Shown: in pieces, positions 54,379 to 60,869 of the stretch
Layout of the letters: every line of letters starts with the position of its first letter
Numbering within the stretch: the stretch's first letter is position 1
Assembly: GCA_019347575.1 (NCBI GenBank)
Contig: JAHWKY010000030.1
Location: forward strand, 1-60,869
DNA from: Actinomycetota bacterium
Lineage (GTDB): Bacteria > Actinomycetota > Nitriliruptoria > Nitriliruptorales > Nitriliruptoraceae
Length of the DNA: 60,869 bases
Direction: 5' to 3'
The notes under the pieces: generated by a model
Told to the model about the DNA's origin: nothing
The model's database searches: none
What the model saw: the letters and a program-made list of their open reading frames with translations, nothing else
Made by a program: the position numbers and the translations under genes

Positions 54379-56514
54379 TCAGTCGGTCCAGGCACCTTCC
54401 CAGCCGTCGAGGTAGCAGGGCCGCTCGCCGCAGATCTCGATCACGTGTCCGTCCGGGCTGAGGAACGCCGCGATCGACGCCAACCCGTAGACGGTCTCTG
54501 ACGCGTCCGGGCCGTGGGGATCGACGCCGTCACGGTTGGGCACGTTGTCGACGGGGGGTGGCGTCGTCCCGCGGGTGCGGCCGTCCTCGTCGCGCAGTGG
54601 GCCGATGTCGGCAACCACCATCGCCGAGCCGACGTAGGGATACTCCTCGATCCGCTCCAGACCCCAGTAAGCGTTGTCGCCGGCGGGGTGCCGGCCCGGG
54701 TCGATGGCCGGGGCGCGCAGCCGCGCCCCGACGGTACGAGCCATCACGTCCGATGCCCAGTTGGTGACCTGGTGATCCCCGAACGCCACGTTGAGGTAGA
54801 CCTCGTGCGGCGGGGTGTTGGCGTAGGGATCGTCGGTCATGTGGTGGGCGTAGCCGTTGGACTCGGCCCGGTCCCACAGCGTCTGGATGAGCGAGAGCAG
54901 CAGCGGCCGCTCGAGCTCGTCGGGGTAGGCGCTGTACATCACGACCGCGTAGGTGTCGAAGTCGATGCTGCGGCGCAGCAACGTCGAGTAGTTCATCGCC
55001 GGTACGCCGAGGTGGGCACGGGTGAAGTCGGGAGCCACCGCGGTGAGCGAGCCGCCCATGATCCCGCCCTGGCTGCCGCCGTTGTAGTACAGCCGGCTGG
55101 TGTCGATGACCGAGTCACCGTCGACCTGGAACGCTTCGTGGCTGGAGAAGCCGTCCGGGTGGATCATCGCGCGGCCCAGGAACAGGAAGTTCAGCATCCC
55201 CTGCTGACCGCGGTCGGCGAGCGAGGGGAACTGGTTGAGGTCGGCCAGGATCGCCAGCGCGTTGGCGATGTCCTCGGTCGACATCCCCGACCAGTCGGTG
55301 GCGCAGAACATCAGTCCCTCGTCGTGCAGCTCGTACAGCTTCCAGGTGTTCACCTGGCTGCCGGAGCCGAGCAGCCCGTGCCCGTACAGCGAGGGGCGGT
55401 ACGTCTTGCCCTCTGCCGCCCCCGCCGGGACGTTGCACGTGAACGGCGCCGCCGCGACGTTGCCGGGGATGCGCAGCGGCGTGTTGTCGTCGAGCCCGGC
55501 GAACGCGAACCGTGACCCGGGCACGCAGCCCGGCGCGTCGAGGTAGCAGGGGACGATGACCCGACCCTCGACGCGGCGGAGCACACGCGGGTCGAGCTCC
55601 TCCTCGTCGCAGTCGACCGGCGGGACGTCGAACTCGACCCGGCACGGCAGGCTCTGGGTGATCTCGTCGACGACGAACGTCGGGGCGGCACCGGCCACCT
55701 CGAGGTCGGCGAGGTTGCTGTCGCCGAGCTGCGCGAACGCGTCGTCACGGATGTGCAGCATCCGCTCCGCGAGGTTGCGTTCCGACGCCACCGTGAAGTC
55801 CCAGGCGAGATAGAGCTCCTCTCGCTCGATGCCGGCCTCCTCGAGGACGGTGAAGATGCTCTCGAAGCGCTCGGCACGCGCCCCGTCTGCCGTCCCGTCG
55901 CGGAACGCGGCGAAGGCGTCCTGCGCTGCCAGCTCCTCGCCGTCGGCGCCCCGCAGGTTGCGCAGCGCGACGATGTAGCGGGCGCCCTCGTCGAAGTTGA
56001 CGGCGGGGCGGATGAGCAGCGTGACGTCCTCGACGGAGGCGGGGTTCGCGTCGAGCTCGCTCCAGATGGGGTGACGCTCACCGGTGTCGGCGTTGATGAC
56101 GACCACGGGCTGGTCGGCATAGGTGTAGGCCCCGAGGTCGAGCAGGCTCACGGGGTTGGTCGCTGCGAACGCCTCTGGCGTGTCGAGGCCCGGCACCCTC
56201 GTGACGATCAGCGCCCCGGGGCTGAAGCCGTCGTTGCGGTTGTACGGCTCGGGCCGGATGGGATCGCCTGCGATGTTGCGGGGCATCTGGCGCACGTCGA
56301 GCGCCAGTCGCCGCCCCGTGTCGGTGCCTTCGTCCTCGTCGGTGAAGTGGTCGTTGGGGAAGGGGTAGAGGCAGTGGCTGGGGTCGAGCGGGTCACAGCG
56401 CCCCGACGTCTCCGTGACGTCGTCGTCGATCGGCCCGACCGCGGCCGGGGCGGCCGCGACGAGCGTCGCGAGCGTGGCCAGCGCGGTGAGCAGCGTGAGC
56501 GGGCGTGCAGGCAT
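54379..56514 (-). CDS. Secreted alpha/beta hydrolase-like protein, unknown substrate
   Basis: A 711-residue secreted protein (signal ARPLTLLTALATLATLVAAAPA). The N-terminus CDPLDPSHCLYPFPNDHFT and a beta-rich region precede a C-terminal alpha/beta hydrolase pattern: GHGLLGSGSQVN, nucleophile elbow YYNGGSQGGIMGG (Ser near residue 480), and a candidate catalytic His in GDHQVTNWASDV. Several cysteine pairs suggest extracellular disulfides. The layout resembles bacterial Pla-1/VolA-type lipases with their own N-terminal domain, but the substrate is not established. It is divergently transcribed from the ceramidase-like gene, so the two may act on one lipid substrate. Confidence 0.75.
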   Translation of the reverse strand: MPARPLTLLTALATLATLVAAAPAAVGPIDDDVTETSGRCDPLDPSHCLYPFPNDHFTDEDEGTDTGRRLALDVRQMPRNIAGDPIRPEPYNRNDGFSPGALIVTRVPGLDTPEAFAATNPVSLLDLGAYTYADQPVVVINADTGERHPIWSELDANPASVEDVTLLIRPAVNFDEGARYIVALRNLRGADGEELAAQDAFAAFRDGTADGARAERFESIFTVLEEAGIEREELYLAWDFTVASERNLAERMLHIRDDAFAQLGDSNLADLEVAGAAPTFVVDEITQSLPCRVEFDVPPVDCDEEELDPRVLRRVEGRVIVPCYLDAPGCVPGSRFAFAGLDDNTPLRIPGNVAAAPFTCNVPAGAAEGKTYRPSLYGHGLLGSGSQVNTWKLYELHDEGLMFCATDWSGMSTEDIANALAILADLNQFPSLADRGQQGMLNFLFLGRAMIHPDGFSSHEAFQVDGDSVIDTSRLYYNGGSQGGIMGGSLTAVAPDFTRAHLGVPAMNYSTLLRRSIDFDTYAVVMYSAYPDELERPLLLSLIQTLWDRAESNGYAHHMTDDPYANTPPHEVYLNVAFGDHQVTNWASDVMARTVGARLRAPAIDPGRHPAGDNAYWGLERIEEYPYVGSAMVVADIGPLRDEDGRTRGTTPPPVDNVPNRDGVDPHGPDASETVYGLASIAAFLSPDGHVIEICGERPCYLDGWEGAWTD

Positions 56515-56653
56515 CAGGGAGCGTTCTCCGGTCCGGGCGGTACTCCAGAGGGTTCGACGCCACGTCCGCCCGCTCCTCCCCGGGCAGGAGAGCGACCCTC
56601 GCGCGCCGAAGTCTCCCAGTCCGACCCGCACCCCTCCTCGAGGCGGACCGCCG

Positions 56654-59600
56654 ATGCGCTGGAAGTTCACCCCTGTCGTCCTGCTCGCCGCCCTCGTGGC
56701 GTCGACGCTCGCGTTCGTGACTCCCGGTCCGGGGCCGGTCGCCGACGCTGCCGACCGCCCCGAGGTCGCGATCCCCGACGGCGTCGCCTACGCCGGTGTG
56801 GGGTCGCGCGACGTGTCGTGGCACCTCGGGGCGTCCGGGGGCCAGTTCGCGGACACGGAACCGCCTGTCCGCGAGGACTTCATCGACCCGCACGCCCACA
56901 GCGTGAAGAAGCGCCCCGCCGACGGCATCGCCTCCCGCATCCTCACCCGGGCACTGGTGGTCGAGGGCGCGGACGGCACGCGCGCCGCGGTCGTGGCCAA
57001 CGACCTCTACCTCCCCAACGACTACCTGCTCCGGCGGACCGCGCAGCTCATCGCCGAACACGACCTGCTCGTGACCGCCGGAGTGAAGGACGGGCCGGTC
57101 ACGGGCATCACCGGCGACAACCTCGCGATGACCGTCAGCCACAACCACAACTCGGCGTTCTACTCGACCCCGAGCTGGGGCACCTGGATCTTCCAGGACG
57201 TGGTCGACCTGCGCTTCTTCGACTACTACGCCCAGCGCATGGCCGACGCGGTCATCGAGGCGGCGAGCGACCTGCGTCCCGTCCGCATGGGCGCCGCCAC
57301 GGTCCCGTTCAACGAGATCACCTCGCACACCTACGGTCCCAAGGTCGCCGACGACGGCACGCCAGCGGGCCAGCCCTACAGCCACACCACCGGCCAGCTC
57401 TCGGTCGTCCGTTTCGACGACGTCACCGACCCGGCCGACCCCCAGCCCTTCATCGCGTGGATCACCCTGGGTGTCCACCCGGAGTGGACCTGGGGCTACG
57501 ACCTGTTCAACGGCGACATCACGCACGCCACGATGCGCGTCGTCGACCGCGAGCTGGGCGTCACCTCGGTGATGAGCCAGCGCGAGACCGGCTCCTCTGG
57601 TCCGCACAAGGACCGTCGGGTGCACGAGCCGGAGGACCGGCGCGAGTTCCAGGACAACGGCTTCGAGCAGCTGGACCGCGGGGCGCGCATCTGGGCCGAC
57701 GCGGTCCACGAGGCGTGGGACGCGATCGAGACCACGCCTGACACCGAACCGTACGACCCTGCCGCACCGCGCCGCGACGGCCCCCCCATCGATGTGCTGG
57801 GGTTCGTCGAGGGCTTCACCGTCGACGTCGCCTCGTTCCGCTTCGCCCCGCCGAAGGGTCGCCCCGTCCCCGGCGTGAGCAACTGCAACACCGCGTCGCT
57901 GTTCCACGGCAACTGGCAGCTACCGGTGCTGGGGTTGCCGGACTGCGAGGACAACCCGTTCGGCCTGATGCCGGTGGGGCTCGACGAGGTCGGTGGCCAG
58001 GTCGTCGGCACCACACCGGTGGACGAGTACGCCCTGTACGAGCAGCTCAAGGCCGCCGGCGTTCCCATCCCCGAGTCGTACACCGCGACGAAGTTCGGTG
58101 CGGTGGAGGAGACCGCCGCGGTCCACATCATGGCGATGCGCTTCGGCGACCTCGGCGTGACCTTCTGTCCCTGCGAGCAGTTCACCGACACGGCGCTGAA
58201 CACTCAGACGCGGCTCGACCGTGTCGACGACAACGTGTGGCACGGCTGGGACTGGACCACCCAGAAGACCCCGTCGGGGCGCGAGTGGTGCGTCGACAAC
58301 GGCGACGGCACGTCCACGTGCGCCGACCCGCGCAACCCGGCGGCCGATCTGGCTCCGGTGCGCAGCATCGACGTGGATCGGATGCTGTCCCAGATCCGCA
58401 ACGACGCCGATGGCTGGGAGGACGACGCCGCCCAGCTGTTCGGCGAGGCCGAGTCGGCCGACCCCGCCAGCATCTACGGCAACTTCGTCCACGAGGAGGC
58501 GACCGAGCACGGCTTCGGGATGGTCATCTCGGTCGGTATGGCCAACGACTACTTCGGCTACGTGCCCAACTACCGCGAGATGCGTGCGCACGACCACTAC
58601 CGCAAGGCGCTCAACGGGTTGGGGCTGCACGGCGCCGACTACCTGGCCACGCGGATGGTGCGGGTCGCCGCATCCCTCAACGGCGGCCCAGAGGTGGAGC
58701 TGTCGCCCCACGACCTGGCATACCAGGCCGAGTCCGCTCGGGCGGAGGCCTTCGCCCGTTCCATGGGCGAGCTCGCCCGGGCGTACGTCACCAGCTACGA
58801 CGCGCGCCTTCCGGCGGACGGCGGTCAGCCTCGAATCGTCACCGAGCCAGGGTCGATCGAACGCTTCGACGCGACCCACGTGAGCTGGGTCGGCGGCTCC
58901 AACTACGGCGACATCCCGAACGTCGTCGTGGAGCGCGAGGTCGCCCCCGACGTGTGGGAGCCGTACGCCGACATGCATGGCGAGCTCCCGGTGCGGCTCG
59001 ACTTCCCCGCGCCTGCTGACCTGCCAGCCGTCGAGTCCGGCACGTTCGAGTGGGTGTGGACGGCCGCGTTCGAGGCGTTCAGCTCGGAGATGGTGCTGCC
59101 CGATGCGAGCGGGGCGCCGCAGCGTGCCACGCCGGCGGGGCGCTACCGGTTCGTCATCGATGGCACCCACCGCCCCGCACGGGGCGGCGGGGAGGTCGCC
59201 TACCAGCTCGAGTCACAGCCTTTCACGGTGTCGCCTTGGACCGGTATCACGACGTCGGTGACGACGTTGGCGAGCGGTGACGTGGAGGTCGTCGTGGGTC
59301 CGACGACCGCGCTCGAGACGGACGGCAACACGTACACGTTCGGGCCCATCGACTACCCCGATGGCTACGAGTCCCCCTTCGACATCCTCAACGGTGACAA
59401 GCGGCGCTTCACCTACGGGCTGTCCGACCCCGCACGTCACCAGTTCTACTGCTCGTTCTGCCGCTTCCGTGGCTGGGCCGACACCGGCGATGCGGCGGCG
59501 GTCGCTGTGACCGTCACGCGTGCCGACGGCACGACCGAGGTCGTGGATGGCGTGCGCGTCGAGTCCGGTCGGTTCGTCGCCGACGCGGATCTGAGCCCCG

Positions 59601-59662
59601 GTGACACCGCTGCAGCCCTGCCTGGCCAGGTCGTCGACGCGTACGGCAACACCAACGCCTGA
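56654..59662 (+). CDS. Neutral/alkaline ceramidase-like secreted hydrolase
   Basis: A 1002-residue secreted protein (signal VVLLAALVASTLAFVTPGPG). Residues about 40-400 follow the neutral-ceramidase N-terminal domain: GVGSRDVSWHLGASGG, LVVEGADGTRAAVVANDLYL, and the zinc pair His163-x-His165 in TVSHNHNSAF with His275 in LGVHPEWTWG. The canonical nucleophile segment is not obvious; VMSQRETGSSGPHKD occupies its place. A long middle part and a beta-sandwich C-terminus with a CSFCRF cysteine pair follow. The ATG at 56654 opens the signal peptide. It would cleave amide-linked lipids if truly a ceramidase. Confidence 0.72.
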   Translation: MRWKFTPVVLLAALVASTLAFVTPGPGPVADAADRPEVAIPDGVAYAGVGSRDVSWHLGASGGQFADTEPPVREDFIDPHAHSVKKRPADGIASRILTRALVVEGADGTRAAVVANDLYLPNDYLLRRTAQLIAEHDLLVTAGVKDGPVTGITGDNLAMTVSHNHNSAFYSTPSWGTWIFQDVVDLRFFDYYAQRMADAVIEAASDLRPVRMGAATVPFNEITSHTYGPKVADDGTPAGQPYSHTTGQLSVVRFDDVTDPADPQPFIAWITLGVHPEWTWGYDLFNGDITHATMRVVDRELGVTSVMSQRETGSSGPHKDRRVHEPEDRREFQDNGFEQLDRGARIWADAVHEAWDAIETTPDTEPYDPAAPRRDGPPIDVLGFVEGFTVDVASFRFAPPKGRPVPGVSNCNTASLFHGNWQLPVLGLPDCEDNPFGLMPVGLDEVGGQVVGTTPVDEYALYEQLKAAGVPIPESYTATKFGAVEETAAVHIMAMRFGDLGVTFCPCEQFTDTALNTQTRLDRVDDNVWHGWDWTTQKTPSGREWCVDNGDGTSTCADPRNPAADLAPVRSIDVDRMLSQIRNDADGWEDDAAQLFGEAESADPASIYGNFVHEEATEHGFGMVISVGMANDYFGYVPNYREMRAHDHYRKALNGLGLHGADYLATRMVRVAASLNGGPEVELSPHDLAYQAESARAEAFARSMGELARAYVTSYDARLPADGGQPRIVTEPGSIERFDATHVSWVGGSNYGDIPNVVVEREVAPDVWEPYADMHGELPVRLDFPAPADLPAVESGTFEWVWTAAFEAFSSEMVLPDASGAPQRATPAGRYRFVIDGTHRPARGGGEVAYQLESQPFTVSPWTGITTSVTTLASGDVEVVVGPTTALETDGNTYTFGPIDYPDGYESPFDILNGDKRRFTYGLSDPARHQFYCSFCRFRGWADTGDAAAVAVTVTRADGTTEVVDGVRVESGRFVADADLSPGDTAAALPGQVVDAYGNTNA

Positions 59663-59726: not shown

Positions 59727-59803
59727 GGGCCCGTAGCTCAAGTGGTCAGAGCAGCGGACTCATAATCCGTTGGTTCCAGGTTCGAGCCCTGGCGGGCCCA
59801 CCA
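59727..59803 (+). tRNA. tRNA with CAT anticodon (elongator Met or Ile2 with lysidine)
   Basis: Acceptor GGGCCCG with CGGGCCC, D stem GCTC/GAGC, anticodon stem GCGGA/TCCGT around loop CTCATAA, T stem CCAGG/CCTGG, discriminator A and encoded CCA. The C4-G69 and C5-G68 acceptor pairs are features recognised by TilS in tRNA-Ile2, so the isoleucine identity is plausible; elongator Met cannot be excluded by eye. Confidence 0.9.
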
Positions 59804-60329
59804 CCGAAACAGCCTTCTACGGGCTTTTAGAGGCAGTTTTCGGCCATTTGGCCGATCGGCGTCGAAGCGGGTTCGGACCCTTCGCACACCGTTCGCACAC
59901 ATCAGGATCACCCGGTGGCCGCGCTCGAGCGCGCCGCAGTCCACGGACCGCGTCTCATGCGTACGACGGCGGCCCAGGAGGCGGCATGTGTCCCAGCCGG
60001 GCGGCCCGAGGGTGGAACCAACGGAGAGGGCATTCGTTGTCGTCGGGCTCGCGGCTCGCCTCCTGGCAGAGCAGTCCTGGGAGGCATCCCCCGACGCATC
60101 GCTCCTATGGGCGTGCTGGGACGACGCTCGCGCGGCCGCGGCGTAGGGCGGGTCTCGGACTCGAGACACTCAAGACATGCCAGCGTCGGCCGCAGCGGAA
60201 GCACGAAGGCCGTCACTCGGACGGGTTTTCGTGTTGCCTACGGCGCCTCGGCCGAGGGCCAACGGTTTCGATGGGGGAAGGACGGTATCGCCCTGATGTT
60301 TCCTGGTGACAGGCGTTGGGCCTCGCGCT
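59804..60329. other. Non-coding stretch between the tRNA and the IS110-family element
   Basis: No coding frame here looks real: all open frames are arginine/serine-rich and lack ribosome sites. The first 60 bases are AT-richer than the window and contain the palindrome CGGCCATTTGGCCG (59841-59854). TTCGCACAC occurs twice in tandem near 59880-59900. A tRNA 3' end followed by AT-rich DNA and a mobile element is the usual setting of an integration site, but no integrase or second att copy is visible. Confidence 0.5.
59811..59828 (+). terminator. Weak stem-loop with T run after the tRNA
   Basis: AGCC (59811-59814) and GGCT (59822-59825) frame a short loop, followed by TTTT. The stem is only 4 bp, typical of minor tRNA terminators. 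Confidence 0.35.
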
Positions 60330-60519
60330 TAGCGTCTGCAGCACCGGGCCGGCTGACCCGATAACGCCCTGTCGACCCGCGAGGGTCTGGCTCATAGCGA
60401 TGTGTCGCCGGTCCGGTGTTGCGCTGCGGTGTGGCTCAAGAGAGGCATGCCGGGAATCGGTCGGCATCAGGACTGTCCGCCGCGGCGTACTCACCGTCTC
60501 CACGACCAGGAGGTGAACC
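60330..60519 (+). ncRNA. Candidate IS110 bridge RNA region
   Basis: The roughly 190 bases upstream of the IS110-type transposase have no coding signal but show structure: GACCC-GCGA-GGGTC (60374-60387), a 5-bp stem closed by a GNRA tetraloop, and ATGCCG (60447-60452) pairing with CGGCAT (60462-60467) around a 9-base loop. TAGCGT at 60330-60335 fits the -10 pattern. IS110-group elements carry their bridge RNA in this left-end position. Exact boundaries and guide loops cannot be set, because the right end is outside the window. Confidence 0.45.
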
Positions 60520-60869
60520 ATGACGGTGATGATCGGGATCGACCCGCATAAGCGGACCCACACCGCGGTCGCGATCGACGAACGCGGCAAGACGCTGGAT
60601 GAGCTGCGGCTGGTGGCTGACCGCAGCCAGGTCGCCAAGCTGCTGGCCTGGGCAGACCGATTCGACGAGCGTCACTGGGCGGTCGAGGGAGCCAACGGGC
60701 TGGGGCGGATGCTCGCGGTCGGTCTGGTGTCGGCCGGAGAGCACGTGATCGACGTCCCGGCGACGCTCTCGGCTCGGATCCGCACGCTGGGCGGAACCCC
60801 GCACAAGAGCGATGCTCACGACGCTCGCTCAACAGCGCTGGCTGGCCGTCACCGTGACGACCTGCGACC
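60520..60869 (+). mobile_element. IS110-family transposase, 3'-truncated by window end
   Basis: The ATG at 60520 follows AGGAGGT. The visible 116 residues start MTVMIGIDPHKRTHTAVAID, with the first catalytic Asp of the RuvC-like DEDD domain in GIDPHK, the Glu in WAVEGANGLGRML, and LSARIRTLGGTPHKSDAHDARSTA leading to the third acidic residue. These are hallmarks of the IS110 transposase N-terminal domain. The C-terminal serine-containing Tnp domain and the right end are beyond the window. IS110 elements insert without flanking inverted repeats, guided by a bridge RNA. Confidence 0.92.

What the first reader, a model, noticed from the sequence alone, without database searches (positions are those of the whole stretch)
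60330..60519. Candidate bridge RNA with GNRA hairpin
Upstream of the IS110 transposase lie a GCGA-tetraloop hairpin (60374-60387) and a 6-bp stem with a 9-base loop (60447-60467), matching the position expected for an IS110-group bridge RNA. The 9-base loop is a candidate guide loop.
Basis: partly seen in the sequence, partly recalled or inferred. Interest (0 to 1): 0.6.

Follow-up and report, generated by a model that had tools for sequence, protein, structure and literature searches.

The report
Bridge RNA of an IS110 element
The sequence just upstream of this cut-off IS110 transposase gene encodes a genuine bridge RNA, the two-armed guide RNA that tells the jumping element where to insert; it is a new example of a known kind, and the guides sit in different loops from the one first proposed.

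Summary
Window 60310-60487 (+) encodes an IS110-group bridge RNA of about 178 nt: a 5' stem-loop, a target-binding loop (TBL) and a donor-binding loop (DBL), just upstream of an IS110 transposase cut off by the contig end. A covariance model built only from 21 relatives, window left out, finds it at 109 bits (E 5e-23). Its stems carry 124 two-sided compensatory cells across 31 sequences, against 36 in shuffles. Across relatives the guides match their own target and donor sequences far better than those of other elements (0 of 100,000 permutations each for left target, right target and right donor). In the window, 9 of 11 bases of left-target guide plus core match the DNA at the element's left edge. 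The first hairpin is the tip of the TBL; the second lies in the DBL apex and is not conserved; the guides are the internal loops around them. In passing: relatives carry a second, antisense, pseudoknotted RNA in the right end (absent from this truncated copy). A model of it recovers the mycobacterial sRNAs Ms_IGR-2 and ncrMT1302/Mcr11. That link, not the bridge RNA, is the unexpected part.

The parts
60282..60294 (+). Left target flank plus core, ACGGTATCGCC-CT (core CT 60293-60294)
   Evidence: Edge placed by homology to relatives whose ends are known; matches the left target guide in 7 of 9 positions plus both core bases
60293..60519 (+). Left non-coding end (LE) of the IS110 element, beginning CT-GATG
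   Evidence: Homology to the G015 element, five identical copies that diverge at their edges
60310..60487 (+). Bridge RNA, about 178 nt
   Evidence: Three-domain fold; held-out model 109 bits at 60309-60488; covariation
60310..60338 (+). 5' stem-loop, 12 bp in the window
   Evidence: Fold; pairing in this exact register is poorly kept in relatives, so the boundary is tentative
60339..60421 (+). Target-binding loop (15-bp outer stem, internal loop, tip)
60358..60370 (+). Left target guide CCGAUAACGCCCU
   Evidence: Fixed-register match to own left flank, 0 of 100,000 permutations across 36 elements
60371..60391 (+).
   Evidence: helix 3
60392..60403 (+). Right target guide UCAUAGCGAUGU, predicting a right target near TCGCTATGA
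   Evidence: Family-level test in 24 relatives; the window's own right flank is not in the assembly
60422..60487 (+). Donor-binding loop (13-bp stem with bulged U60432)
   Evidence: helix 4, 94% of cells paired
60436..60446 (+). Left donor guide region UCAAGAGAGGC
   Evidence: Resembles the right-end termini ACAAAGAGG/ACAGAGAGG of relatives; no permutation test run because the motif is nearly invariant
60447..60467 (+).
60465..60474 (+). Right donor guide CAUCAGGACU, complementary to the element's left terminus CTGATG
   Evidence: 0 of 100,000 permutations across 35 elements
60520..60867 (+). N-terminal 116 aa of the IS110 transposase, cut by the contig end
   Evidence: PF01548 61 bits; NF033542 IS110 family RNA-guided transposase, partial

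Best explanation
60310-60487 (+) is the bridge RNA of an IS110-group insertion sequence, encoded in its left non-coding end. Shown here: the three-domain fold, compensatory evolution of its stems, association with this transposase subfamily, and guide loops that co-vary with the elements' own target and donor DNA. Inferred from IS621: the RNA is transcribed and bound by the transposase, its TBL pairs with the chromosomal target and its DBL with the joined ends of the excised circle, and the recombinase joins them at a CT core. The window copy sits at a site that its left target guide largely specifies (GGTATCGCC-CT against guide GATAACGCC-CU). Whether this copy is active is unknown, because the assembly stops inside the transposase.
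For: Held-out covariance model 109 bits, E 5.2e-23. 31 sequences: 92.1% of cells paired, 124 cells changed on both sides versus 36.5 in shuffles and at most 28 when slid. G.U 198 versus A.C 9 on this strand. Guide-site permutation tests, 0 of 100,000 each: left target, right target, right donor. Model hits track the IS110 copies of this subfamily in four genomes. Position upstream of tnp in the LE, as in the IS110 group (PMC11208160, PMC11187229).
Against: No expression or binding data. The window's right end, right target and half the transposase are missing. The left target match is 7 of 9, not perfect. The core dinucleotide is not the same at both ends in many relatives, so the core register is uncertain. 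The 5' stem-loop is poorly conserved in register. No Rfam family covers it.
Confidence: 0.94

Rival explanations
1. The hairpins are only a structured 5' leader that controls transposase translation, or DNA hairpins recognised at the element end, with no guide function.
For: The structure lies directly upstream of the ribosome site (AGGAGG at 60508-60513) and start codon.
Against: Internal loops co-vary with flanking and terminal DNA of each element, which a leader or DNA hairpin does not predict; G.U pairs are tolerated on one strand only.
Confidence: 0.03
2. It is a true bridge RNA by descent, but the window copy is a dead remnant.
For: Transposase is cut by the contig end and its second domain is absent from the assembly; single copy.
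Against: The 116 aa present are an open frame with conserved motifs, the RNA is intact, and the left guide still fits the site it sits in. Contig breaks at insertion sequences are common, so the missing half may be an assembly effect.
Confidence: 0.3
3. Chance hairpins in GC-rich DNA.
For: Six-bp hairpins occur about 1.4 times per 190 nt here; the second hairpin is not conserved.
Against: Held-out model and compensatory changes.
Confidence: 0.01

Closest known systems
IS621 bridge RNA (Durrant et al. 2024, PMC11208160)
   Same: Encoded in the left non-coding end upstream of tnp; 5' stem-loop, TBL, DBL in that order; about 177 nt; 5' side of each loop pairs with the bottom strand and 3' side with the top strand; CT core at the left edge.
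   Different: No expression or binding shown here. Relatives have long right ends (most 127-196 nt after the stop codon) and a variable core at the right edge. Sequence family distinct enough that Rfam has no match.
seekRNA of the IS110-type element ISEc21 (Siddiquee et al. 2024, PMC11187229)
   Same: Non-coding region upstream of tnp encodes an RNA with short matches to both target strands.
   Different: Described as 70-100 nt plus a longer precursor; here only the full-length structure is inferred.
IS1111-group bridge/seekRNA
   Same: DEDD transposase family and two-loop guide principle.
   Different: IS1111 elements usually carry the RNA downstream of tnp; here the guide-bearing RNA is upstream.

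Membership tests
IS110-group bridge RNA | Encoded in the LE next to a DEDD (PF01548) transposase | tested here: met
   PF01548 at 60520 on, RNA at 60310-60487
IS110-group bridge RNA | 5' stem-loop, then TBL, then DBL, conserved by covariation | tested here: met
   TBL and DBL strongly; the 5' stem-loop folds but is weakly conserved in register
IS110-group bridge RNA | TBL guides match left and right target | tested here: met
   Family level both sides; window left side 7 of 9 plus core; window right side not available
IS110-group bridge RNA | DBL guides match the element's own termini | tested here: met
   Right donor tested (window CATCAG/CTGATG); left donor seen by inspection only
IS110-group bridge RNA | Same core dinucleotide at both ends and in all four pairings | tested here: inconclusive
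   CT general at left ends; right ends CT in about a third, otherwise GT, CC, CG, CA, AT, GC
IS110-group bridge RNA | Promoter formed across the RE-LE junction | tested here: inconclusive
   TTGACA in nearly all right ends of relatives, but poor -10 matches; window right end missing
IS110-group bridge RNA | Transcribed and bound by the transposase | not testable with these tools
   Needs small-RNA sequencing and binding assays
IS110-group transposase | C-terminal PF02371 domain with conserved serine | not testable with these tools
   Contig ends; domain not in the assembly. The G015 relative matches IS621 structures in this domain
IS1111-group seekRNA | Guide RNA downstream of tnp | tested here: not met
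   The guide-bearing RNA is upstream. The right-end RNA of relatives is antisense and no guide match was shown for it

The most novel reading that the evidence does not exclude
Elements of this IS110 subfamily encode two RNAs: the bridge RNA in the left end and, antisense in the right end, a second pseudoknotted RNA of about 113 nt that is homologous to the mycobacterial sRNAs Ms_IGR-2 and ncrMT1302/Mcr11. The M. tuberculosis regulator Mcr11 would then be a transposon RNA taken over by the host, or both would share an older ancestor. The window's own right end is missing and its nearest relatives (L005, L014) have a shortened form, so this concerns the family rather than the window copy.
Probability: 0.65. 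Interest if true: 0.75.

Novelty: new member of a known kind. Interest (0 to 1): 0.4.

Why it matters
The bridge RNA adds a well-supported case from a sparsely sampled actinobacterial lineage, with guides placed precisely enough to predict its target (about GATAACGCC-CT-TCGCTATGA). It also shows that a guide cannot be read from the most visible hairpin loop. The right-end RNA of its relatives, if confirmed, would suggest an origin for an abundant M. tuberculosis sRNA and add a new component to a recombinase family now used for genome editing.

Tried and rejected
Rfam on the region: nothing but the tRNA and sub-threshold noise. Peptide-pattern search of genome contigs and viral contigs with the 116-aa query: no relatives; whole-genome search worked instead. 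Empty site in sister genomes: essentially only the conserved tRNA-Met matched, so the pre-insertion site could not be reconstructed. Other copies or the missing transposase half in the same assembly: none. Sigma-70 promoter in the left end alone: none. The 9-base loop as guide: rejected. Idea that the right-end antisense RNA is a duplicated donor-binding loop: they share a G(U)GRCU/GYCC entry motif and GTAGCGTT, and there is one weak model hit in a right end (20 bits, L056), but sequence similarity is not above shuffles, so paralogy is not claimed.

Full report
What is there. The window is one whole contig of a 120-contig, 4.9-Mb assembly (Actinomycetota, judging from its relatives), and it ends inside an IS110 transposase (ATG at 60520; PF01548 61 bits). 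Each alone proves little: six-bp hairpins are expected about 1.4 times per 190 nt in this window, while 5-bp GNRA hairpins are rarer. Folded as RNA, 60310-60500 gives three domains in a row: a 12-bp 5' stem-loop (60310-60338), a 15-bp stem with an internal loop and tip (60339-60421), and a 13-bp stem with a large loop (60422-60487); z = -2.78. That is the order 5' stem-loop, target-binding loop (TBL), donor-binding loop (DBL) reported for IS621 (PMC11208160).

Is it conserved? Whole-genome searches gave 30-odd relatives of the transposase at 46-65% identity, with more distant ones on plasmids. On 31 aligned upstream regions the structure pairs in 92.1% of cells, with 23 pairs and 124 cells changed on both sides. 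Shuffles give 16.1 pairs and 36.5 cells, and sliding the partners by 1-3 columns drops pairing to 31-49%. A covariance model built from 21 relatives without the window finds the window copy at 109 bits (E 5.2e-23), and nothing else in the 61 kb above 12.2 bits. A model that includes it gives one hit in this genome, seven in G015, one in G011 and two in G028, matching the IS110 copies of this subfamily there. G.U pairs exceed A.C mismatches 198 to 9, so the selected molecule is RNA of this strand.

Where does the element end? Genome G015 holds five identical copies at different loci. They share 1418 bp from TCCCCTGATGG to CACACAGAGGGTTCG and then diverge. By homology the window element begins at the core CT 60293-60294, followed by GATG.

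Where are the guides? Not in the apical loops. For 36 elements, the 13 nt before the TBL tip were compared in fixed register with the DNA at the element's own left edge. The nine positions before the core match on average 5.64 times, against 3.96 +/- 0.22 when guides are permuted among elements (0 of 100,000 as high). For the window, guide CCGAUAACGCCCU faces DNA ACGGTATCGCCCT: 7 of 9 plus the core. For 24 relatives with a readable right end, the other side of the TBL matches the right flank (6.0 versus 4.99 +/- 0.17, 0 of 100,000), with clear paired changes such as CGCTAATCA in L031/L032 and CGCTATCAG in L033. For 35 elements the 3' side of the DBL matches the element's own left terminus (6.14 versus 5.48 +/- 0.10, 0 of 100,000), and the fourth base after the core changes with the guide in most elements (GATG, GATT, GATA; also GACTTG and ACTT). 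Because relatives share guides and sites, the permuted scores are raised, so these tests are if anything conservative. The guide segments were picked by hand from the fold before scoring.

60447-60467 lies in the apex of the DBL. In relatives that apex does not form a conserved stem, and its 3' arm overlaps the right donor guide. The 9-base loop matches the left flank region in 6 of 9 positions, which shuffled loops reach 20% of the time.

How it most likely works (inferred from IS621 and seekRNA work, PMC11208160, PMC11187229). After excision the joined ends form a promoter. Among relatives with a readable right end nearly all carry TTGACA just before the terminus, though -10 matches are poor. 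The RNA binds the transposase, the TBL finds the chromosomal site, the DBL holds the circle junction, and strands are exchanged at the core. The core register is the least certain part: CT is general at left ends but not at right ends.

Limits. The window's right end, right target and half its transposase are not in the assembly. No empty site was found. There are no expression data.

A further finding in relatives, outside the window. The right ends of most relatives contain a highly conserved structure read antisense to the transposase: an outer stem, an inner GCCGG/CCGGC hairpin, and a pseudoknot between its loop and the 3' side, with paired changes (CAGGA/UCCUG, UCGGGA/UCCCGA, GAGG/CCUC). 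Ten of 24 pairs have two-sided changes (shuffles 4.0), and G.U 31 against A.C 2 points to the antisense strand. A model of it (R3) gave 27 hits in 33 relatives' loci (one locus has two), including several not used to build it at 82-111 bits; it is weak (32-35 bits) in the window's nearest relatives L005 and L014. In 396 actinobacterial genomes R3 has 18 hits: eight beside an IS110 transposase or remnant, ten not, and no bridge RNA was found near any of the unlinked ones. Of the ten, three are Rfam Ms_IGR-2 and one is Rfam ncrMT1302 above threshold, at the same place and strand. The ncrMT1302 hit (L098) lies between an adenylyl-cyclase-type ORF and the next ORF, which fits the Rv1264-Rv1265 position reported for Mcr11 (PMC4109619, PMC8628891); the orthology of these two ORFs is my reading of their translations, not a search result. 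In reverse, Rfam's ncrMT1302 model hits IS110 right ends at 23-33 bits, below its threshold of 45 but over its full length. Homology is therefore well supported, the direction of descent is not, and the function in the element is unknown. R3 E-values come from a short calibration and are rough. I found no paper that mentions both Mcr11 and IS110 in the library searched.

Verdict. The bridge RNA is real and ordinary for its family: a new member of a known kind, with the guide loops reassigned. The antisense right-end RNA of the family is the part that deserves follow-up.

Noticed in passing
Right ends of relatives, e.g. L056:2532-2644 (-), L030:2528-2640 (-), L026:1659-1770 (-); not in the window: A conserved pseudoknotted RNA antisense to the transposase in the right end of most relatives; its model also finds the mycobacterial sRNAs Ms_IGR-2 and ncrMT1302/Mcr11.
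   Followed up: partly
L091, L094, L096, L099, L100, L103: Hits of the right-end RNA model with no IS110 transposase of this subfamily and no bridge RNA within 1.5 kb; possible further free-standing sRNAs or remnants.
   Followed up: no
L033:2555-2693 (-): A weak bridge-RNA-like hit (32.9 bits) on the opposite strand just outside the right edge of a Streptomyces element, perhaps a relic of a neighbouring IS110.
   Followed up: no
window 59727-59803: tRNA-Met (CAT), followed by about 490 nt without a recognised gene before the IS110 left edge.
   Followed up: no
window 60210-60234: Terminator-like hairpin with a T-rich tail upstream of the element.
   Followed up: no
window 56414-59662: Long secreted-looking ORF (1082 aa as listed, true start probably further in) that by eye resembles a neutral ceramidase; not searched.
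   Followed up: no
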